Assembly: GCF_002723955.1 (NCBI RefSeq)
Contig: NZ_BEWN01000001.1
Location: 496,001 to 560,000, forward strand
Reading direction: 5' to 3'
Length of the DNA: 64,000 bases
Source of the DNA: Gluconobacter frateurii
Lineage (GTDB): Bacteria; Pseudomonadota; Alphaproteobacteria; Acetobacterales; Acetobacteraceae
Part shown: positions 29,109 to 60,112 of the stretch, in pieces
How positions within the stretch are numbered: position 1 is the stretch's first letter
How the letters are laid out: every line of letters begins with the position of its first letter
Program-made: the position numbers and the translations under genes
Notes under the pieces: model-generated
What the model saw: the letters and a program-made list of their open reading frames with translations, nothing else
Told to the model about the DNA's origin: nothing
The model's database searches: none

Positions 29109-29894
29109 ATGGAATGGAAATTGCCAAATGAGCTGAACAATCCCGCACCACGAGATATATACAGGCTGCCAATTTTCATAAAACAATGGGTGTGGATATT
29201 TGGGGTTTTAGGATTTTTTGGTGTTTTACCAATATTAATTATCTCTGCAGTTATTTTGAATAACATTCATAAATTTGAGGTTCATGGTCTTGTCGCCATC
29301 GCTCATATTGACAAATCCTACCTTGTAAAAGAGCGACACGGATGGAATTGTATGGTAGAATACTCTTTCTTTAACAAAGAAAGAGTATTTATAGACAAAA
29401 ATAAAACGTCTTATAACAATATAAATTGCTCGAGAATGTATGGTAGAAATATAAAAATTTACTATTTAAAAGATAATTACAATCGCAATGTACCTATGGA
29501 TAAAAATAGAGAAAATGAAAATTCTCTTATGAATATCTCGTCCTTATTATTGGGCTTGATAATTGTTTCTAGTTGTTATGTTTTCTTGCAGTCATTTTTT
29601 CAGCTTCGTAGAGAGGCGAAGTTGATGCGGCTAGGTTGTGCGACACAAGGATGGATCACAACAAGCGCTATAAAACGACAAAACAATCAGAGATTTCTCC
29701 GTGTTTACGGAATTTATAAAGATAGAGAGGAGAATATTTATAATTTTCATAAAGATTTTTCTCTAATGTACGGAGATGACGGAAATTCTGTTCTGGAAAA
29801 GGCTAAATTAAATACGACTATTCTTTATTATCCAGGGAGACATGATTTAAATATAATGTATCCGCCAAAATACATTGGATTTTATTCCGAATGA
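29109..29894 (+). CDS. AT-rich two-helix membrane protein, possibly DUF3592-like
   Basis: A 261-residue protein of unknown function. It has two clear transmembrane segments (near residues 25-47 and 140-163), each followed by a similar extracytoplasmic-type segment containing a Y-F/I-x-Y-Y pattern and ending near YYLKDN or YYPGRHD; this duplicated layout loosely resembles DUF3592 proteins. Base composition is far more AT-rich than the flanking chromosome and codon use is accordingly shifted, suggesting horizontal gain. The Shine-Dalgarno is weak; a TTG at 29094 would add 5 residues. It lies at the prophage border, so it may be cargo. Confidence 0.5.
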   Translation: MEWKLPNELNNPAPRDIYRLPIFIKQWVWIFGVLGFFGVLPILIISAVILNNIHKFEVHGLVAIAHIDKSYLVKERHGWNCMVEYSFFNKERVFIDKNKTSYNNINCSRMYGRNIKIYYLKDNYNRNVPMDKNRENENSLMNISSLLLGLIIVSSCYVFLQSFFQLRREAKLMRLGCATQGWITTSAIKRQNNQRFLRVYGIYKDREENIYNFHKDFSLMYGDDGNSVLEKAKLNTTILYYPGRHDLNIMYPPKYIGFYSE

Positions 29895-43674: not shown

Positions 43675-44970
43675 TCAGGCTGAGTAGCCCCATTGTGTAT
43701 CGAGCCACGCCAGGCGGCCGTCGTACCAGTGCGTCAGATAGGGATAGGACGCGATGGGGTTTGTCCCGTAGAGCGCCCAGTCGGCTGCCAGATCGTCAGC
43801 TCGAAAACGCGCATAGTTTTGCAGAACCGACCGGAAAGTGGTGCCGGACAATGTCCCTGACCGTCGCAAGTAGGCGTAACGGGCACGGATCTGATCCTGA
43901 AACTGATCACGCATCTGCTTGAAAACCGTTGCCCCATCACTGGCCCAGCCCGTGGTGCCTGGCGCAGCACCATTTGGCTCATTCCACTTCACACCCAGGC
44001 TTTCATCCAGATCGTAGGAATCAATTTCCCATAATCCGGACGTCTGCGTGCCTGTGTACGATTTCAGGATGACGTTATTCAGCGTGCTGTCGAAACTCCC
44101 CACCACCTCAATATGAATGATGTAGTCCAGCCAGGACGCCAGATTGAGATAGTCACGATACAGCAGCCATTTTCCCGGATCCTGAAGACAGGATGCAAAC
44201 CAGTCGATCAGGCGTCCTGGCACGGATGTGTCAGGCTTGGCCGGAGACGAGAATTCCCAGACAGACGTGTTTAACTGGCCCTTGTCCGTCCAGATCGCAT
44301 CCGAGCCGTGTTGCGGCTGGAGCAGATAGTGAGATGGATTCTGGTCGTCAATCAGATAGGTCTGATTGCTGTTATCCGATCGCAGCATATAGCAGCCATA
44401 AAACACTGGCTGCGGATCAGAGGGCGTCTGAAGGTAGACGTTGACCGGCCAACAGTCACACGAGCACAGAGGCGACTGGAAGAGCGTGGTCGTCGCATTC
44501 AGCCGTGCGTACCACGGCGTGAGCTGACCCGGATCCGACGGAGTGTCGCGCCGGATCTGTCGCCAGATTTCCAGACTGACCGCCTCACGGACCATGGAGC
44601 GATCAAAGGCCGTGGGATTGCCCGGAATAGACCCATAGGCCTTGAGCGTGATGGACGTGCTTTCGGCCCACGCTCCAAACTGAATGGCAACCTTGTCCTT
44701 GTTGGCGTTCTTGACCTTGATCTTGAGGTTCTTCTTGGACGCGCCTGCACTGGTCTGCCCCTGGAGGCCGACTGTGCATTTCCCGCTATCGTTGGAATAC
44801 AGAACGGCATCACCGGCCAGAATGGCAAACGTGCAGTTTACCCCGTCACTGTCTGTCGGAGCTGACGGCGCGGCAATAACGAACCTGTCCGGCAATGGTA
44901 GACGCAGAAACGTTTCTGAGGCCCGCAGACCCCAGATCGCCTTGTCCACAGAGGTTGGGTTGTCCCCCAT
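43675..44970 (-). CDS. Phage tail-module protein with CotH-kinase-like region
   Basis: A 431-residue protein. The C-terminal two thirds recall the CotH protein-kinase fold: YRDYLNLASWLDYIIHIEVVGSFDSTLNNVILKSYTG, then a pattern W-x-I-D-S-Y-D-L-D about residues 310-325, like the CotH stretch W-x-x-x-P-Y-D-L-D that carries metal-binding acidic residues. The N-terminal third is strand-rich and could attach to the tail. CotH proteins phosphorylate other proteins and occur in some phages. The likeness is from motif reading only; whether the domain is active, and what it acts on, is unknown. Confidence 0.6.
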   Translation of the reverse strand: MGDNPTSVDKAIWGLRASETFLRLPLPDRFVIAAPSAPTDSDGVNCTFAILAGDAVLYSNDSGKCTVGLQGQTSAGASKKNLKIKVKNANKDKVAIQFGAWAESTSITLKAYGSIPGNPTAFDRSMVREAVSLEIWRQIRRDTPSDPGQLTPWYARLNATTTLFQSPLCSCDCWPVNVYLQTPSDPQPVFYGCYMLRSDNSNQTYLIDDQNPSHYLLQPQHGSDAIWTDKGQLNTSVWEFSSPAKPDTSVPGRLIDWFASCLQDPGKWLLYRDYLNLASWLDYIIHIEVVGSFDSTLNNVILKSYTGTQTSGLWEIDSYDLDESLGVKWNEPNGAAPGTTGWASDGATVFKQMRDQFQDQIRARYAYLRRSGTLSGTTFRSVLQNYARFRADDLAADWALYGTNPIASYPYLTHWYDGRLAWLDTQWGYSA

Positions 44971-44982
44971 GATGCGGTTTCC

Positions 44983-46011
44983 TTATGCCGCAGCCGGAGA
45001 AGCGGCCTTGGCTTCCAGGGCAGCAATCCTGGCCGTCAGGTCAGACCGTTCCAGACGTTCACAGAACAGGCCCAGAGACAGCAGTTCTTCATAGCGAAGC
45101 GTCTGCTGGGTCGCCTGCGTTTTTCCGTCTGCTTCGTACACGGGCTGGACAGTCGTGGTCGTGGACCCATCTTCATTTTTCGCCGTCACGATCTGCGTCC
45201 GTGGCTCTGAACACCAGAGACCGTATTCCGCAGGATCAAGCCCCTGCGCGGTGAAGGCAGCCTGCACAACCTGAGCAATGACGCCAATGTGGCGACGATC
45301 AGATGCACCGTTTTTGAGAGTATACACAACGCCGCTGATGGCAGCCCAGGCGGCCCGAAGCTTTGCTGTGATGTCCGTATAACCACTGTCGCCCAGGGTG
45401 CCGATGATAGTCTTGTCGTTTGCGTCCGAAACAACCTGCGGCGCTGTCTGGGTTACGACGCCTGACCAGGCGTTGTTGGATGTTCCCAGGCTGGTGACGT
45501 TATTGGTCTGTGGGTGCAGCGTAGACCCTCCCACGGCCAGATTCCCGTCCATATTGCCTGTTCCACCCCAGGCAGTCAGCGTAGCCGCTGTCCCCTCATT
45601 GGAGCCGCTATAAAACTGAATGGCGGTCTGGTCGGATCCTCCGGGCTTTCCAGCATTAATATAGGTAATGGCTCCCGAAACGGAGTTGAGCAGAATGCCG
45701 CCACCGTCATCGATGCCGACGACCCCACCATTCGTGCCGACAGCGCTCTTCAGCAGATAATTCCCCAGCTTGGTATCGACGTCCGTTCCGGCTGACTTTA
45801 CTGCAGCAACAGCTTCAGATGCAGATGTCTTGGCAGCAGACGCATCACTTGCGGCCTGTCGGGTCTGACCGGCAAGCGCATCCAGACGAATGCCAGCTGC
45901 TGGTGTAGCGCTGCCTGGATCCAGCACGGTCAGGGCAGAGGCGTCACCGCGCACGAAAGTATCTGCTCCAACCTTGCCAAAGGTTGTCGGGTTTCCATCA
46001 GAAAGAGACAT
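44983..46011 (-). CDS. Tail fibre with S74 intramolecular chaperone domain
   Basis: A 342-residue fibre or spike protein. The C-terminal 150 residues match the peptidase S74 self-cleaving chaperone: the catalytic Ser195 and Lys200 lie in VSDANDK, followed by the helical core (LRAAWAAISGVVYTLK) and the RRHIGVIAQ and YEELLSLGLFCERLE stretches, ending in a coiled coil. S74 domains fold the trimeric fibre and then cut themselves off. The N-terminal half has beta-helix-like repeats. I start at the ATG at 46011 with GGAAGA upstream. Confidence 0.85.
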   Translation of the reverse strand: MSLSDGNPTTFGKVGADTFVRGDASALTVLDPGSATPAAGIRLDALAGQTRQAASDASAAKTSASEAVAAVKSAGTDVDTKLGNYLLKSAVGTNGGVVGIDDGGGILLNSVSGAITYINAGKPGGSDQTAIQFYSGSNEGTAATLTAWGGTGNMDGNLAVGGSTLHPQTNNVTSLGTSNNAWSGVVTQTAPQVVSDANDKTIIGTLGDSGYTDITAKLRAAWAAISGVVYTLKNGASDRRHIGVIAQVVQAAFTAQGLDPAEYGLWCSEPRTQIVTAKNEDGSTTTTVQPVYEADGKTQATQQTLRYEELLSLGLFCERLERSDLTARIAALEAKAASPAAA

Positions 46012-46024
46012 GAGTCTTCCAGTA

Positions 46025-46750
46025 TTAAAGGGGTGAGAGCAGCGGGCCGTTCGCCCAGGTACCAGCAAAAAACTGGCTGCCATCCGTCATGACGGTTTCA
46101 TCGTCCGCGTTCAGGGAGAGGCCAGCCGGCAAGGATTTCGTCCCAGCCTGGTACTCAGCTGGCGCGACGTATCGGCTTCCATCAGCCACCAGATCGGACG
46201 GCAGGATCTGCGCATCGGACGGAACAGGACGCACAAAGCCGTCCTGGTCGATATAGACCCGGCTACCATCCAGTCCGGACACGGCCGTCAACAGGTCTGC
46301 CAGCGTGGCGACGGTGTCGCCCGTCTGAAACTGCGTTGCCCCATCCAGCGGAATGACTGTCGCCAGACGGGCTGGCGTGGTCTGTGTGGCCGGCAGAACC
46401 TTCAGCGCCGCGACCAGAGATTTGCCGTCTGTCAGGGACAACTGCCCCAGAGCATCCAGCGCTGCCAGGCCGCCCGCTTTGCCACGGAAGGAATTTACGG
46501 TGTCCGAGGACGCAGTCCCGGCCGCTTCAGCTTTGGCAGCCGCACTGGCAGCAGCCGTTTCCGCAGCCTCTACAGCATCATCCAGACCGATTGCCGCACT
46601 GATGGCCTGCGCAAGAACAAGGATTGTGACCTGATTGGCACCTGTTCCGCCGGCTTTGGTGACGATTCCCAGGAGCGCGTCCGTAGAAGACACGCTGTCC
46701 GCAAACGGGAGGCCGGAAATCGGCTGCCCTGGTTGATTGGTTGTTGCCAT
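46025..46750 (-). CDS. Phage fibre-cassette structural protein
   Basis: A 241-residue protein that starts MATTNQPGQPISGLPFADSV and has an Ala-rich helical segment (residues about 58-80) followed by strand-rich stretches (DGFVRPVPSDAQILPSDLVADGSRY). This is the make-up of fibre-base or collar-type proteins. It lies between the fibre-tail adaptor-like protein and the S74 fibre and probably links them. No specific family was recognised. It starts 14 bp after the neighbouring gene's stop. Confidence 0.5.
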   Translation of the reverse strand: MATTNQPGQPISGLPFADSVSSTDALLGIVTKAGGTGANQVTILVLAQAISAAIGLDDAVEAAETAAASAAAKAEAAGTASSDTVNSFRGKAGGLAALDALGQLSLTDGKSLVAALKVLPATQTTPARLATVIPLDGATQFQTGDTVATLADLLTAVSGLDGSRVYIDQDGFVRPVPSDAQILPSDLVADGSRYVAPAEYQAGTKSLPAGLSLNADDETVMTDGSQFFAGTWANGPLLSPL

Positions 46751-48846: not shown

Positions 48847-49184
48847 GTTCCACCTGCTGCAAAGAGTTTCCAGCCGCAGATCTGATCGCCGTCATAAACA
48901 GCTGTCGCATCTGTCAGCGTGTAAATCCGATCGCCGTCCTTCAGCTGGTCCATGTTGTGCGGGCGGCCATATCCAGCAGCTTGCAGCTCATCATTCAGGA
49001 TTTCCGCCACGAACGGCATGACCGAAACGCCGGCTTCCAGCGCTGCCGTAGCAGGCGGCGCGGAATAGGCGATCAGGTTCACCGCAACGGGAGCAGGAAG
49101 GCTGCCATTATTCGCACGGGACAGCGCCATCATGCGGCCTTTACGTCGGATCTGACGACGCCGGCGTTCTGTCTGATACCCCAT
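48843..49184 (-). CDS. Probable head closure or minor head-tail protein
   Basis: A 113-residue protein with a basic N-terminus (YQTERRRRQIRRKGR), then a strand-rich middle with APPATAALEAGVSVMPFVAEIL and an end ICGWKLFAAGGT. Siphovirus morphogenesis modules have a small head-closure protein here, between connector and tail terminator. I place the start at the ATG at 49184, sharing one base with the upstream TGA (TGATG). No family signature was recognised, so the role is from position. Confidence 0.5.
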   Translation of the reverse strand: MGYQTERRRRQIRRKGRMMALSRANNGSLPAPVAVNLIAYSAPPATAALEAGVSVMPFVAEILNDELQAAGYGRPHNMDQLKDGDRIYTLTDATAVYDGDQICGWKLFAAGGT

Positions 49185-49831
49185 CAGGCACACCCTGCGC
49201 TGCGGAAACGTTGCACCAGCCCAGCCGCTTCCGGTGTCAGTCCTCCTAAAGAGGGATCCGGAACAGCCCAGCTTGTGGAGCCCACGCCCTGTTCATTTTC
49301 TGATTTCAAAGTCGGATCACGGCCCTGAGCATAGTAGGAGGCGGCTGCGACGCGCCGCACGGCCAGGCAAATGGCTCCCGGAAAATTTCCAGGCTGCACG
49401 GTTCCGTCATCCAGAGTGACGGGCGGGTTATATCCCGCCTCATAGGTCACGAGATACCGGCCTGCCGGCCAGAAAGGCTGTGTGACATCAGGCCGGTAAA
49501 GTTCGCCGCAGTCGTCATCGATGACCAGATCGTTGATGGTGTCTTGCTCAAGCGCTGTTCCGTTTCGTGTGACGGCAATCACGTTGTGAACGGGATAGAC
49601 GCCAAGGAGCAGAGACAGCGTGCGAGGGAAGGGACGCACAAAGATTTGGTCCTGCCAGGTCTGGGACAGTAGAGGCCGGCCGATAAATGTCAGAACAGCC
49701 TCAGTCGCATCCATAAGGTATCTCTGGAGGTCCGTATCAGACTGGGCATCTGTGATGCCCAGTCTGATACGGACCTCCAGAGAGGCCAAAGGCACCAGGG
49801 CAGGAGCTGACCCGAGGGGAATGCTTCTCAT
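49184..49831 (-). CDS. Head-tail connector protein (gp6-like)
   Basis: A 215-residue head-tail connector. The N-terminal helical pattern LASLEVRIRLGITDAQ..DTDLQRYLMDATEAVL is the usual start of this family (L-x-E-x-K-x-x-L-x-I ... D-x-x-L-x-x-x-I-x-A-A-x-x-x-V). A strand-rich core follows (YPVHNVIAVTRNGTALE, ELYRPDVTQPFWPAGRYLVTYEAGYN), then the conserved C-terminal helix FPGAICLAVRRVAAASYYAQG. Within the first helix the gene contains a perfect 30-bp inverted repeat (49721-49783). Confidence 0.78.
   Translation of the reverse strand: MRSIPLGSAPALVPLASLEVRIRLGITDAQSDTDLQRYLMDATEAVLTFIGRPLLSQTWQDQIFVRPFPRTLSLLLGVYPVHNVIAVTRNGTALEQDTINDLVIDDDCGELYRPDVTQPFWPAGRYLVTYEAGYNPPVTLDDGTVQPGNFPGAICLAVRRVAAASYYAQGRDPTLKSENEQGVGSTSWAVPDPSLGGLTPEAAGLVQRFRSAGCA
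49721..49783. repeat. Perfect 30-bp inverted repeat, 3-nt loop, inside the connector gene
   Basis: The arms 49721-49750 and 49754-49783 are exact reverse complements over all 30 bases, with TGT (plus strand) between them. The repeat lies in codons about 17-37 of the connector gene and still codes for a family-like helix. Such a long exact palindrome in coding DNA is very unlikely by chance; it would form a stable hairpin in mRNA or single-stranded DNA. Confidence 0.95.
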
Positions 49832-49852: not shown

Positions 49853-51091
49853 TTAGCCGCCGTTCGCCGGCGCTGCGCCTGTCTGGAGCGCCTTGATGGC
49901 CGTACCGGCACCAGGCATACCGCCGCCGAAGCGCGCATATCCGAAGAAGGCGGTCTGGAGAGCATCGGCATAGCGCTCATTCAGGCGCACGACCGACAGG
50001 CCTTTCACGTTTCGGAACTTGTAGTTCTTGAAGTTGCCGAACAGCATGGCCTTATTGCCAGCCCCAATGTCAGGCATGCTCTGATTGATGTTCAAAGGCG
50101 AGCCCGCGAACATATCCGGTGCGCCTGCAGCAATGGATGGAGACCAGAGTGGGCGGCCTTCATTGTCCTTCAGCTTGCGCAAAGCCTTGAACGTCATATC
50201 GTTCAACATGAACGAAGCGCCCTGACGATAGGCTGGATCCACACTGTGCTGCAGGTCGAGAATGTCATCATAGCCGATGGCAACGGTGGCCGTGGTAGCG
50301 CCTACTCCTGCGGCCGTGCAGACACCCTGCGGCATATTCGTGCCGGTCCCTACAGTCAGATCATCTGCCAGGGTACGGCCAAAGCGCGTGGCCAGAGCGG
50401 TACGCAGGAAGGCGTCCAGATCAAGGAAGGAATCCTGCATCAGCGTCCAGGGCACCAGGACGGCATCCGTAGCGTACAAATAGGCCAGGACGTTGGAGAT
50501 TCCGAACTTCAGGTCGCTGGTGCTGATCGTAGTGTTTTCACCAATGATCTTGGCGCGAGCAGATGTGTCGTCGTTCGTTGGCCAGGGAAGGGGCGCACCG
50601 GACCCTGTCTGGATCTCGTCGAACAGATCCAGGGACGTGAAGTACCCCTTCAGAGCGACCAGGAGCTGATCGGCAAAGAGGGGAGGAACGAGATAGCCGC
50701 CAGCCTGACCGGACTGGGTGCTCTGTGCGGCCCGGAACTCAGTTCCCAGGCGTGCCTGGTTGAGGGCGAAGACACGGTCCTCTCCGGCAAGGTTGTCCAT
50801 GCCACCACGTAGCCATGCGCCGAAGACACGGACTTCCTGCGTTTCACGATCGCGCTGTTCGTCTGCGCCTCGGCCTTCACCTTCGCCACGGGCCGCAATC
50901 TGCACGGCCAGTTCCGCTTCAGCAGCCTCAGCTGTCTCGATGCGATCAATTCGGGCCTTCAGTTCGTCTGCCTCGGCCATCATGGCGTCGAACTGGGCAT
51001 TCTGTTCGGCGGTGACAGTTTCGCCGTTGATCAGAGCGCGGGCGTCAGAAATCAGCTTTGCACGCTTGGCGCGCAATTCCTTGGAACGCAT
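49853..51091 (-). CDS. Major capsid protein, HK97 family
   Basis: A 412-residue capsid protein. Residues 1-105 are a charged coiled-coil region like the HK97 delta (scaffold) domain, which the co-encoded protease removes. The mature part begins near TQSGQAGGYLVPPLFADQL and contains typical strand-rich segments (GENTTISTSDLKFGISNVLAYLYATDAVLVPWTLMQDS and FMLNDMTFKALRKLKD). The start (MRSKELRAKRAKLISDARAL) fits. Portal and protease genes lie just upstream. Confidence 0.93.
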   Translation of the reverse strand: MRSKELRAKRAKLISDARALINGETVTAEQNAQFDAMMAEADELKARIDRIETAEAAEAELAVQIAARGEGEGRGADEQRDRETQEVRVFGAWLRGGMDNLAGEDRVFALNQARLGTEFRAAQSTQSGQAGGYLVPPLFADQLLVALKGYFTSLDLFDEIQTGSGAPLPWPTNDDTSARAKIIGENTTISTSDLKFGISNVLAYLYATDAVLVPWTLMQDSFLDLDAFLRTALATRFGRTLADDLTVGTGTNMPQGVCTAAGVGATTATVAIGYDDILDLQHSVDPAYRQGASFMLNDMTFKALRKLKDNEGRPLWSPSIAAGAPDMFAGSPLNINQSMPDIGAGNKAMLFGNFKNYKFRNVKGLSVVRLNERYADALQTAFFGYARFGGGMPGAGTAIKALQTGAAPANGG

Positions 51092-55043: not shown

Positions 55044-55620
55044 TGTTCACCACCAGTTTGGGCTGTGTCATGGGAGCAAACCGACCGGAGGACGCCTTTT
55101 CAGCTTCATCCTTTTGCTGCTCTTTCTTGCCTTTTTTGGACCCAGCTTTGCCACCTAGGAGCGTGACAGTCTGCGCAATCGTCTTCAGGATATTCGCTCG
55201 CATCGAGTGACTGACGGCTTTCATCATCTCAGCCTGGCGTCGTGGACTTTTGTCGTCAGCAGTTTCATCACTGATGGTCTCGATGATTTCATCGAGGTGC
55301 TCAGTCGAATGCTCAAGCTCTTCGGTCATACGCCCAGCCAAGCAGAGCAAACGCTCTTCCAGGTCTTCGGGAATGGCTTCCGCGACGACAGGTGAGGGGC
55401 GTTTGTGCGCAACTGGACGTTGGTGCGCAGTGGTGCGCACTTTTGGGGTAGAAGTGCGCACCTTTTGCGCGCCCGTTTTCTCCCATCCTTCAGACGCGAT
55501 GCGCTTGCGCAGGGTGCTTTCAGCAATCCCGAATTGCTTGGCAATCTGGCGGTTTGACAGGCTTCCCGCGCAATAAGCGTTGGCAATTTCCGCCCAGTCT
55601 GTTGGCGGTTTCTTCGACAT
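55021..55620 (-). CDS. Probable terminase small subunit with HTH domain
   Basis: A 199-residue protein just upstream of terL, the standard place for TerS, which recognises the packaging site. The first 60 residues contain a helix-turn-helix of the type NRQIAKQFGIAESTLRKRIASEG. A linker with repeats of KVRT-type and a helical middle (EELEHSTEHLDEIIETISDETAD) follow, then a Lys-rich tail. Start at the ATG at 55620; an upstream ATG would add 12 unlike residues. The linker DNA carries GTGCGCA repeats, possible TerS binding sites. Confidence 0.72.
   Translation of the reverse strand: MSKKPPTDWAEIANAYCAGSLSNRQIAKQFGIAESTLRKRIASEGWEKTGAQKVRTSTPKVRTTAHQRPVAHKRPSPVVAEAIPEDLEERLLCLAGRMTEELEHSTEHLDEIIETISDETADDKSPRRQAEMMKAVSHSMRANILKTIAQTVTLLGGKAGSKKGKKEQQKDEAEKASSGRFAPMTQPKLVVNNGKRRDG
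55405..55461. repeat. Clustered GTGCGCA repeats inside the terS gene
   Basis: GTGCGCA occurs at 55405-55411, 55423-55429, 55433-55439 and 55454-55460, with two of the copies extended to the palindrome GTGCGCAC. A further GTGCGCAC lies at 55644-55651, just upstream of the terS start. Spacing is irregular, between about 10 and 21 bp. The repeats encode part of the TerS linker. They may be terminase or regulator binding sites, but this is inference. Confidence 0.6.
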
Positions 55621-57940: not shown

Positions 57941-58163
57941 ATTCAATCCGCACAGGCTTGTCCGATAACTCCTGGTTATTGTGTCGCGTCAAACAGAAAT
58001 TCATTGAAGTAGAAAGGAAGAAAATAAAATTTAAATTTTAGGGGATCTCGATGTGATAACGTAAAAACATCAAGTTTAGGTATTTTATAAAGAGTTCGGT
58101 TTCAATGCAAGAAGGTTTTGATCGAAGCATAAGATTATTAGGATAAAACTGGAAAGGAGGTTG
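57941..58163. other. Non-coding spacer turning AT-rich
   Basis: Non-coding stretch between the recombinase gene's half-site cluster and the leader ORF. Composition changes from moderate GC to very AT-rich around 58010, which marks the edge of the AT-rich cargo. A perfect AAGGAGG Shine-Dalgarno is at 58154-58160. No other feature is visible. Confidence 0.4.
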
Positions 58164-58229
58164 ATGAGCCCTTTCAAATGTATAAACTTTTTCGCATTGA
58201 TTGAGAGTGATGAATATGGAACCCAATAA
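58164..58229 (+). CDS. Leader ORF coupled to the AT-rich membrane protein
   Basis: A 21-codon ORF (beginning MSPFKCINFFALIES) with the strongest Shine-Dalgarno in the region, AAGGAGG at 58154-58160. The stop TAA shares a base with the ATG of the following gene (TAATG at 58227-58231). The spacer from GGAGG to ATG is only 3 nt, somewhat short. The layout suggests a leader peptide whose translation delivers ribosomes to the next gene, which has almost no site of its own. Too short to assess by protein family. Confidence 0.5.
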   Translation: MSPFKCINFFALIESDEYGTQ

Positions 58230-59524
58230 TGAGAGTTGAGAGTTTTATTAATCTTATTAAACGTAATACACTAAACAGGAAAAATCAAAATGATGAAATT
58301 GCCCTTAATGAAGAGATAGATTTTTTAGAAAAATCAATATCTAAATTTTCATCAGAACTATCCTTCATAGAAGAAACAATAAACGAAATAGATAATTCTT
58401 ATGTAAGCGATGACAAATTAATAGAAAATTATAATAAATATATAAAATCAAAAATACAGATAGAGAAAACTATAGAAGAATATAGAAAAGAACTTGATAA
58501 ATTTTACTACATTAGAGATGGAGCAATAGAGCAAAAAGAAAAAATAAGAAAAATACAGTTTTTATTATTAGCGCCTATTGTTATACTTTTATTATACATG
58601 ATATTTATTTTTATAAACCAAATCTTATTAGATAAAACATATACTTATAACGGGTATAATGTTTTATCTACACTTTCCATACCTATAGCTTTTTTTTCAA
58701 TAGTTATATATTCAAATATATATTTGAAATATGGAACTATTTTTTTAGATGATTACTATTCAGTTAGTATGGCAATCAGAAGTAATAAATTCGACTTATT
58801 AGATAACGAGAGCTTAAAATTAAATAATGATGTAAATATATCAGATATAATCAATAATTCGGAAAAATCTAAGTTGGGAGAAGACACGTATCCGAGAAAC
58901 GAAAAGGAAGAATTTTTTGGGACAGTAGAAAATGATCCTGAATTTAAGAAAGAATATCTATATAAAGCATTAAGCCAAGATAAGATTCTTGGATACGATG
59001 ATATATTTTTAAATAGCCGAAATAGAATTCTTACAGAAATTGATAGGCTGTCAAATAGTGGAAATTTTAACTTGGCGATTGGAGTGGCGACAACATTTCT
59101 ATCTGTACTTGCTCTCGGAGTTGTTGTTTTTATTCAAAATGCACCTGAACATATAAATCATATACAATATATATCCACTATAATAATGAGACTATCAATT
59201 GCTGTATTTATTGAAGTTTTTGCTTATTTTTTCCTAAAATTATATAAAAAAAATCTTGAGGAAATTCGTTTTTTTCAGAATGAAATATCAAACTTGGATT
59301 ATAAGTGGGCAGCTTTATCAGTTTCTCTAGAGAATGATGATTTAACAAAAATATCTGTTGAAAATTTGATTTCAACAGAAAGAAATTATCTCTTGAAGCC
59401 GGGAGAAACAACGATTGAGCTTGAAAGAGAAAAAATGGAAAAAAATGAAATACTTGAAATAGTTAGGGATGTTACAAATATTATAAAAATCAGAGAAGAT
59501 AGTGGAACAAAAAAGAAAAAATAA
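58229..59524 (+). CDS. AT-rich coiled-coil membrane protein, prophage cargo
   Basis: A 431-residue protein of unknown function. Residues 1-105 are charged coiled coil, then come two transmembrane helices (about 109-132 and 145-167), a 115-residue acidic soluble region, two more transmembrane helices (about 282-305 and 315-335) and a helical C-terminal tail ending in lysines. GC content is far below the phage and host background, implying recent transfer. It is the only large rightward gene in the leftward phage block and lies between the recombinase and a late-regulator-like gene, a common slot for cargo. Anti-phage or superinfection-exclusion function is plausible but unproven. Confidence 0.7.
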   Translation: MRVESFINLIKRNTLNRKNQNDEIALNEEIDFLEKSISKFSSELSFIEETINEIDNSYVSDDKLIENYNKYIKSKIQIEKTIEEYRKELDKFYYIRDGAIEQKEKIRKIQFLLLAPIVILLLYMIFIFINQILLDKTYTYNGYNVLSTLSIPIAFFSIVIYSNIYLKYGTIFLDDYYSVSMAIRSNKFDLLDNESLKLNNDVNISDIINNSEKSKLGEDTYPRNEKEEFFGTVENDPEFKKEYLYKALSQDKILGYDDIFLNSRNRILTEIDRLSNSGNFNLAIGVATTFLSVLALGVVVFIQNAPEHINHIQYISTIIMRLSIAVFIEVFAYFFLKLYKKNLEEIRFFQNEISNLDYKWAALSVSLENDDLTKISVENLISTERNYLLKPGETTIELEREKMEKNEILEIVRDVTNIIKIREDSGTKKKK

Positions 59525-59547
59525 TTTTTTTGCTAAAATTAAATAAT

Positions 59548-59589
59548 CGCTTCATTTTTAATTTTATTTTTTATATTAGAAATGAAGCG
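59548..59589. terminator. AT-rich hairpin between convergent genes
   Basis: CGCTTCATTT (59548-59557) pairs with AAATGAAGCG (59580-59589) exactly, around a 22-nt A/T-rich loop. It lies between the AT-rich gene and the convergent regulator-like gene and likely terminates one or both. The loop is long for a standard terminator. Confidence 0.55.
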
Positions 59590-59614
59590 GATTAATTAAT
59601 GTGAGATATGAAGC

Positions 59615-60112
59615 TCAGTTTTCCTCATAATAATTTGCCAATTGCTCCAGTAGCAATTCAGCTGCACCAGTCATCCCCTGACGGTTCTTCCCATAGTGCT
59701 CAGCAATCTTTCCAAGCGAGAGCCCGTCAAGTACCAATAACACCAGCAGATCCGACGCATAGTGTCCCAATGTACGCCTGATTCTCTCGCACCGCGCTAC
59801 TGCGGCAGAACGTGCGATAAGCATGTCGTGGATGTCGCCACCGCCGGATCCGCGGCGTTCGGGATCTGAGGCGCCCATGATGCCGGTTTCGAAGTCACGC
59901 GCCCATCGTTGGGCGGCATCGACGTGGCGTTGGGTTATCGTGCCAGAACGCAGCAAGCCGTAGAGGCCAGCTCCACGGCGTAGGACGTTGGTTGGTGGTC
60001 TGTCTTTTCCTTGCTCCAGTTCAGCCAGAGCGATGCGGTTTTTCCAGGCCCCCTGCATGGGGACGGCTTCTTCAATTGGTCGAGTTGCCTCAGCGGCAGT
60101 AGTCATTTGCAT
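59615..60112 (-). CDS. DUF6456-like helix-turn-helix protein, possible late-gene regulator
   Basis: A 165-residue protein. The middle resembles DUF6456 proteins (RGAGLYGLLRSGTITQRHVDAAQRWARDFE) and the end has a sigma-r4-like helix-turn-helix (DLLVLLVLDGLSLGKIAEHYGKNRQGMTGAAELLLEQLANYY). Proteins of this shape act in phages as RinA/Q-like activators of late genes. It is the last gene of the leftward early block and lies upstream of the late genes, the classic Q place. A second ATG at 60106 is an equally good start. Confidence 0.55.
   Translation of the reverse strand: MQMTTAAEATRPIEEAVPMQGAWKNRIALAELEQGKDRPPTNVLRRGAGLYGLLRSGTITQRHVDAAQRWARDFETGIMGASDPERRGSGGGDIHDMLIARSAAVARCERIRRTLGHYASDLLVLLVLDGLSLGKIAEHYGKNRQGMTGAAELLLEQLANYYEEN

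What the first reader, a model, noticed from the sequence alone, without database searches (positions are those of the whole stretch)
49721..49783. Perfect 30-bp inverted repeat inside the head-tail connector gene
In the sequence: two exact 30-base arms with a 3-nt loop. They encode the normal first helix of the connector family, so the palindrome was built under protein constraint. Chance occurrence is negligible. Possible explanations are template switching during replication (perfecting a quasi-palindrome), a regulatory or processing hairpin in late mRNA, or a site read by a phage nuclease. If it came from template switching, one arm should differ from relatives at the protein level.
Basis: seen in the sequence. 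Interest (0 to 1): 0.72.

Follow-up and report, generated by a model that had tools for sequence, protein, structure and literature searches.

The report
Phage-gene palindrome made by template switching
A perfect 63-base DNA palindrome inside a prophage's head-tail connector gene is most likely the scar of a single copying slip, in which the polymerase copied one half of an imperfect palindrome onto the other; the process is well known, and this is a long, clean example that replaced six amino acids of a normally conserved helix with five others.

Summary
The palindrome is real: two perfect 30-nt arms and a 3-nt loop at 49721-49783, inside the connector ORF 49184-49831(-). It is the longest perfect short-loop inverted repeat in the window (next 14 bp) and exceeds those in a 240-kb sample of the host contig (longest 18 bp). 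None of the 47 homologue rows covering the site carries it. The two nearest (L004, L005) carry an imperfect version: a 9-bp inner stem plus a 7- or 6-bp outer repeat. One arm differs from all of them. Their 17-nt stretch is replaced by 14 nt (49763-49776), the exact reverse complement of the untouched arm (49728-49741), ending precisely at the two short repeats. SLADLKADLGI became SLEVRIRLGI, in frame. The rest of the gene differs from L004 at 4 of 585 sites. This is quasi-palindrome correction by template switching. A conserved regulatory hairpin or nuclease site is not supported, because relatives lack the palindrome. A library or assembly artefact cannot be excluded without reads. Known mechanism, good natural example, modest interest.

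The parts
49184..49831 (-). head-tail connector (gp6-like) gene carrying the palindrome, 215 aa
   Evidence: PHROG 442; Pfam PF05135
49721..49750 (-). source arm (3' arm of the gene), encodes DAQSDTDLQR; same as the close homologues apart from one L004-specific and one L005-specific difference and the older differences of the rest
49754..49783 (-). rewritten arm (5' arm of the gene), encodes SLEVRIRLGI where L004 and L005 have SLADLKADLGI
49763..49776 (-). minimal copied tract: 14 nt in place of 17 nt of the relatives
   Evidence: alignment; also picked out by the cluster scan
49728..49741 (-). template of the copied tract (exact reverse complement)
49742..49762 (-). pre-existing inner stem, 9 bp on each side of a 3-nt loop that is not inverted; first switch point lies in it
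   Evidence: 9 bp present in L004, L005, L010, L037 and L039
49777..49783 (-). outer 7-nt repeat, rewritten-arm side; return switch point
   Evidence: same 7 bp in L004, L008, L009 (rows L079, L083, L084); 6 bp in L005 (row L080); 3 or 0 in the other six rows compared
49721..49727 (-). outer 7-nt repeat, source-arm side

Best explanation
The palindrome is a recent template-switch mutation. The ancestral connector gene held a quasi-palindrome: a 9-bp stem around a 3-nt loop, plus a matching 7-nt pair further out. During one round of DNA synthesis the growing strand left its template inside the inner stem. It was extended on the other arm, either by folding back on itself or by jumping to the complementary parental strand. 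It then returned to the proper template at the outer 7-nt repeat. The 17 nt between were replaced by 14 nt that exactly complement the source arm. The frame was kept; six residues (ADLKAD) were replaced by five (EVRIR). Shown: the altered arm, the exact copy, the switch repeats, the unchanged source and loop, and absence from the homologues found. Inferred: that it was one event, the intra- or inter-strand route, the strand, and the time. The hairpin probably has no selected function.
For: Close homologues found by protein search were aligned at DNA and protein level. Against L004 the 5' arm shows 7 substitutions and 2 gaps in 33 columns, versus 4 of 585 in the rest of the gene (Fisher p 7e-10); the 3' arm has one L004-specific difference. 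The 14-nt tract is an exact reverse complement bounded by the 9- and 7-nt repeats. In a scan of difference clusters against four related records (120, 204, 203 and 168 clusters), the only reverse-complement explanation of 8 nt or more was this tract, at 30 nt, in each of the four; the reversed-sequence control gave 6 hits in all, of 9 to 15 nt. None of the 47 homologue rows covering the site has EVRIRL or a perfect arm above 9 bp there. The three relatives folded already form a stem here (z -5.4, -5.5, -3.1; window -14.3). The source has no other copy in the genome. The process that turns quasi-palindromes into perfect ones is described in PMC7202029 (passages).
Against: No second genome carrying the palindrome was found and no reads are available, so the state rests on one assembly. 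The exact parent sequence is not seen: L004 has one mismatch in its source arm and L005 one in its outer repeat. Of the ten homologues compared, only L004 has both the 9-bp inner and the 7-bp outer repeat in full. The strand argument is weak: the prophage part of the window itself has near-zero GC skew (-0.016 to 0.015 per 8 kb from 32 kb on).
Confidence: 0.9

Rival explanations
1. Sequencing-library or assembly artefact: a polymerase switched template at the quasi-palindrome in vitro, and the consensus took the chimeric form.
For: Template switching at inverted repeats also occurs in vitro, in T7 replisome amplification and, as cited there, in PCR (PMC9484634, passages). Only one genome was found to carry it.
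Against: The sequence returns to the original template, stays in frame without a stop, and sits in a 1.13-Mb contig of a nearly complete genome (10 contigs, 99.97% complete). An in vitro error would have to dominate the reads.
Confidence: 0.06
2. A selected hairpin: a regulatory or RNase III processing site in late mRNA, or a DNA site read by a phage nuclease.
For: Very stable RNA hairpin (-65.5 kcal/mol); an HNH gene lies in the same late gene block. In E. coli, inverted repeats are enriched about 25 to 60 bp downstream of start codons (PMC6060812, passages); this palindrome spans nt 49-111 of its gene, so it overlaps the edge of that zone but its centre lies beyond it.
Against: The 47 homologue rows covering the site lack it, including phages 91-97% identical in this protein. 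Pairing is not kept: L006, L008 and L009 have only 4 bp of uninterrupted inner stem, and L007 shares L006's letters here. The same E. coli paper finds comparatively few inverted repeats of 8 bp or more in ORFs.
Confidence: 0.03
3. Several independent point mutations and a 3-nt deletion that happened to perfect the stem under selection on the protein.
For: The new residues can be read as partly conservative (D to E, L to V, K to R) when the gap is placed as.
Against: 14 consecutive matched bases have chance 3.7e-9 in that register; the rest of the gene is nearly unchanged (4 of 585).
Confidence: 0.01

Closest known systems
Quasi-palindrome-associated template-switch mutations in E. coli, yeast CYC1 and phage T4 rIIB (Ripley 1982; Dutra and Lovett 2006; both seen only as cited in PMC7202029, passages read)
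   Same: Imperfect inverted repeat made perfect by copying one arm onto the other; leading- and lagging-strand reporters exist
   Different: Those are laboratory reporters and mutational hotspots; this is inferred from comparison of natural prophages and replaces 17 nt by 14 in a structural gene
Template-switch multinucleotide mutations in Saccharomyces cerevisiae genes (PMC8604942; abstract and passages read)
   Same: Arm homogenisation in coding DNA with several neighbouring amino-acid changes
   Different: Table 1 there lists arms of 7 to 16 bp and the abstract up to five neighbouring replacements in a gene; here the arms are 30 bp and six residues are replaced by five
Template switching that creates RNA hairpins (PMC8794818; abstract and one section read)
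   Same: One event can create a perfect stem by reverse-complement copying
   Different: The section read treats microRNA and rRNA genes; here a protein-coding phage gene without sign of hairpin function
Coding palindromes in Nematomorpha mitochondrial genes (PMC6649704; abstract and passages read)
   Same: Perfect inverted repeats inside translated genes; template switching is offered there as one possible cause
   Different: There both arms encode conserved residues and some locations are shared by four species; here one arm departs from the family and no homologue found has it

Membership tests
Quasi-palindrome template-switch mutation | Relatives carry an imperfect inverted repeat at the site | tested here: met
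   Ten homologues compared: 9-bp inner stem in five (L004, L005, L010, L037, L039); outer 7 bp in three (L004, L008, L009), 6 bp in L005; both in full only in L004
Quasi-palindrome template-switch mutation | One arm changed, the other ancestral | tested here: met
Quasi-palindrome template-switch mutation | New tract is the exact reverse complement of the other arm and is bounded by short repeats | tested here: met
   14 nt, bounded by 9 and 7 nt
Quasi-palindrome template-switch mutation | Changes cluster far above local divergence | tested here: met
   9 events in 33 columns against 4 of 585 in the rest of the gene, L004 comparison
Quasi-palindrome template-switch mutation | Present in the DNA molecules, not made in vitro | not testable with these tools
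   no reads held
Conserved regulatory or processing hairpin | Stem kept across related phages | tested here: not met
   0 of 47 covering rows has a perfect arm above 9 bp with loop 3-12 in the first 200 nt of the matched stretch; some rows come from the same record
Phage nuclease or packaging site | Site shared by phages with the same packaging genes | tested here: not met
   four records that align with the window across terminase, portal and capsid genes have the unrewritten arm (L004, L005, L008, L009)
Phage gp6-like head-tail connector (PF05135) | Profile score above the curated cut-off | tested here: met
   26 bits against 21.2

The most novel reading that the evidence does not exclude
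The switch created a 30-bp RNA hairpin that now serves as an RNase III cut site, or as a drag on translation, inside late mRNA, and together with the altered helix damps virion assembly. One mutation would then have moved the prophage a step towards domestication.
Probability: 0.05. Interest if true: 0.5.

Novelty: new member of a known kind. Interest (0 to 1): 0.3.

Why it matters
It is a clean natural example of what looks like one replication error replacing six adjacent residues by five and building a long perfect hairpin in a phage structural gene, with both switch points readable. Such events can pass for positive selection, recombination or a regulatory element. The imperfect form persists in related phages, so recurrence at this site can be looked for.

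Tried and rejected
Conserved hairpin, nuclease or packaging site: rejected because the homologues found lack it. Another donor copy in the genome: none. More switch events of this kind in the prophage: none found by the cluster scan, which tests only clusters of at least 4 differences spanning at least 6 nt in aligned stretches. The palindrome core in IMG/VR: no match. Related DNA among phage records and related proteins among phage and plasmid records: no match at E 1e-5. PDB sequence relatives of alignment A2: none up to E 1. Structure models were compared only by their printed confidence and helix limits; no fold search was run. Of the 25 places, two are the window itself and eight (L012-L018, L031) were aligned; the other 15, which are weaker matches, were not examined. 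Paper searches listed no report of this locus; I saw listings only, except seven papers opened, of which I read abstracts, passages or one section, none in full.

Full report
Observation. The palindrome is present as described: 30-nt arms at 49721-49750 and 49754-49783, fully complementary, 3 nt apart. It lies in codons 17-37 of the 215-aa ORF 49184-49831 on the minus strand, a head-tail connector by PHROG 442 and Pfam PF05135. The ORF follows the capsid gene (49853-51091, minus strand) in the late region of a prophage. Four IMG/VR phage records share DNA with the window, with gaps, across roughly 30.6-63.2 kb.

Rarity. Scanning for perfect arms of at least 11 nt with loops up to 20 nt, the window holds 7 such repeats, the second longest 14 bp. 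A 240-kb sample of the host contig holds 23, the longest 18 bp. 148.6 kb of related phage records hold 16, the longest 14 bp. The independent-base expectation for 30 bp or more is 1.9e-12 in 64 kb. The 30-mer has no copy elsewhere in the genome.

Relatives. A protein search gave seven phage loci at 79-96% identity (L004-L010) and one Gluconobacter albidus locus at 68% (L003). A profile search gave 35 phage loci, the first seven among them again. The genus search gave a match in 6 of 26 genomes, the window's own included; four of the others (L037-L040) cover the site and the fifth is a 56-base match elsewhere in the gene. In a protein alignment of 49 rows, the window included, 47 of the 48 others cover the site (L018 starts after it; some rows come from the same record). 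None has the window's EVRIRL; the close ones read ADLKADLGI, ADLKSDLGI, DDLKADLGI, EDLKADLGI or QDLMTDLGI. No covering row has a perfect arm above 9 bp (loops 3-12) in the first 200 nt of its matched stretch.

Anatomy of the change (coding strand). L004 and L005: TCTCTGG-CGGATCTGAAAGCGGAC-CTGGGCATC, then ACA, then GATGCCCAG-TCTGATACG(A/G)ACCT-(C/T)CAGAGA. Window: TCTCTGG-AGGTCCGTATCAGA-CTGGGCATC, ACA, GATGCCCAG-TCTGATACGGACCT-CCAGAGA. The inner 9 nt and outer 7 nt of the rewritten arm are unchanged. The 17 nt between them are replaced by 14 nt that exactly complement the other arm. The loop is not inverted. The source arm matches L004 and L005 apart from one difference specific to each. Against L004 the altered arm carries 7 substitutions and 2 gaps in 33 columns, while the rest of the gene has 4 differences in 585 (Fisher p 7e-10). 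The flanks are more diverged (2.9% for L004, 6.4-13.6% for L005-L009), which suggests that these phages are mosaic; no single relative is the parent. Of the ten homologues compared, five have the 9-bp inner stem, three the 7-bp outer repeat, and only L004 both in full.

Unbiased check. A script listed all clusters of at least 4 differences between the window and four related records (120, 204, 203 and 168 clusters). It asked whether each derived tract of at least 6 nt is a reverse complement of sequence within 150 nt, taking either side as derived. The only hit of 8 nt or more was this tract, extending to 30 nt, in each of the four comparisons. The control, the same test with plain reversal, gave 6 hits in all, of 9 to 15 nt, so chance hits of that size do occur with this method, but not of 30.

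Mechanism. This is the signature of quasi-palindrome correction by template switching, in which a stalled polymerase uses the nascent strand as template, returns, and leaves a more perfect inverted repeat (PMC7202029, passages read). The relatives' form already folds as a single strand (z -5.4 in L004, -5.5 in L005, -3.1 in L010, the three folded; -14.3 in the window), a plausible cause of the stall. GC skew is positive on the contig's + strand in 18 of 20 sampled stretches. If the host follows the usual rule (recalled) that the leading strand is G-rich, the nascent + strand passes the source arm first and the rewritten arm second, as a leading-strand fold-back needs. Against this, the prophage part of the window has near-zero skew, an inter-strand jump on the other strand gives the same product, and the event may have happened during lytic growth. 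This step is inference.

Consequence for the protein. SLADLKADLGI became SLEVRIRLGI: six residues replaced by five. The Asp of DLK, invariant in the 26 rows of alignment A3, is lost, or read as replaced by Glu, depending on where the gap is placed. AlphaFold models, built on alignments that differ only by the window protein, give helix 1 as residues 18-25 in L005 (pLDDT 91 for residues 21-30) but 20-24 in the window protein (pLDDT 65 for residues 21-30). This is a weak sign that the helix is disturbed; the model may simply be unsure of an unusual segment. Whether the connector still works is unknown.

Rivals. A selected hairpin or nuclease site is not supported, because even phages 91-97% identical in this protein lack it. 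In E. coli, inverted repeats are enriched about 25-60 bp after start codons (PMC6060812, passages); this palindrome, at nt 49-111, overlaps only the edge of that zone. A library or assembly artefact remains possible in principle, since polymerases switch template at inverted repeats in vitro as well (PMC9484634, passages). It would have to dominate the reads and still return in frame.

Novelty. The mechanism is known; PMC7202029 says that the link between quasi-palindromes and template switching was first observed in yeast CYC1 and phage T4 rIIB. Compared with the yeast coding examples (arms of 7 to 16 bp in Table 1, PMC8604942, passages) this one is long. It is a new instance of a known kind.

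Noticed in passing
43675-44970 (-): ORF of 431 aa in the prophage late region matching CotH kinase (PF08757, 53.6 bits against cut-off 23.8), next to an ORF with a Peptidase_S74 domain (44983-46083); an unusual cargo or tail-associated protein.
   Followed up: no
58229-59524 (+): 431-aa ORF on the opposite strand to its larger neighbours, matching PHROG 5157 (unknown function), in a stretch (about 57987-59622) that BLAST does not align with any of the four related phage records; looks like an inserted accessory gene.
   Followed up: no
29359-29389: 14-bp perfect inverted repeat with a 3-nt loop about 1.2 kb outside the left edge of the shared prophage region, inside a 266-aa ORF without Pfam match.
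   Followed up: no
55432-55462: 11-bp inverted repeat inside the 211-aa ORF just upstream of the large terminase; a repeat with the same or nearly the same arms and the same loop length is also in three of the four related records (L071, L073, L077), and in L073 both arms change together so that pairing is kept. Unlike the 30-bp palindrome it may be conserved.
   Followed up: no
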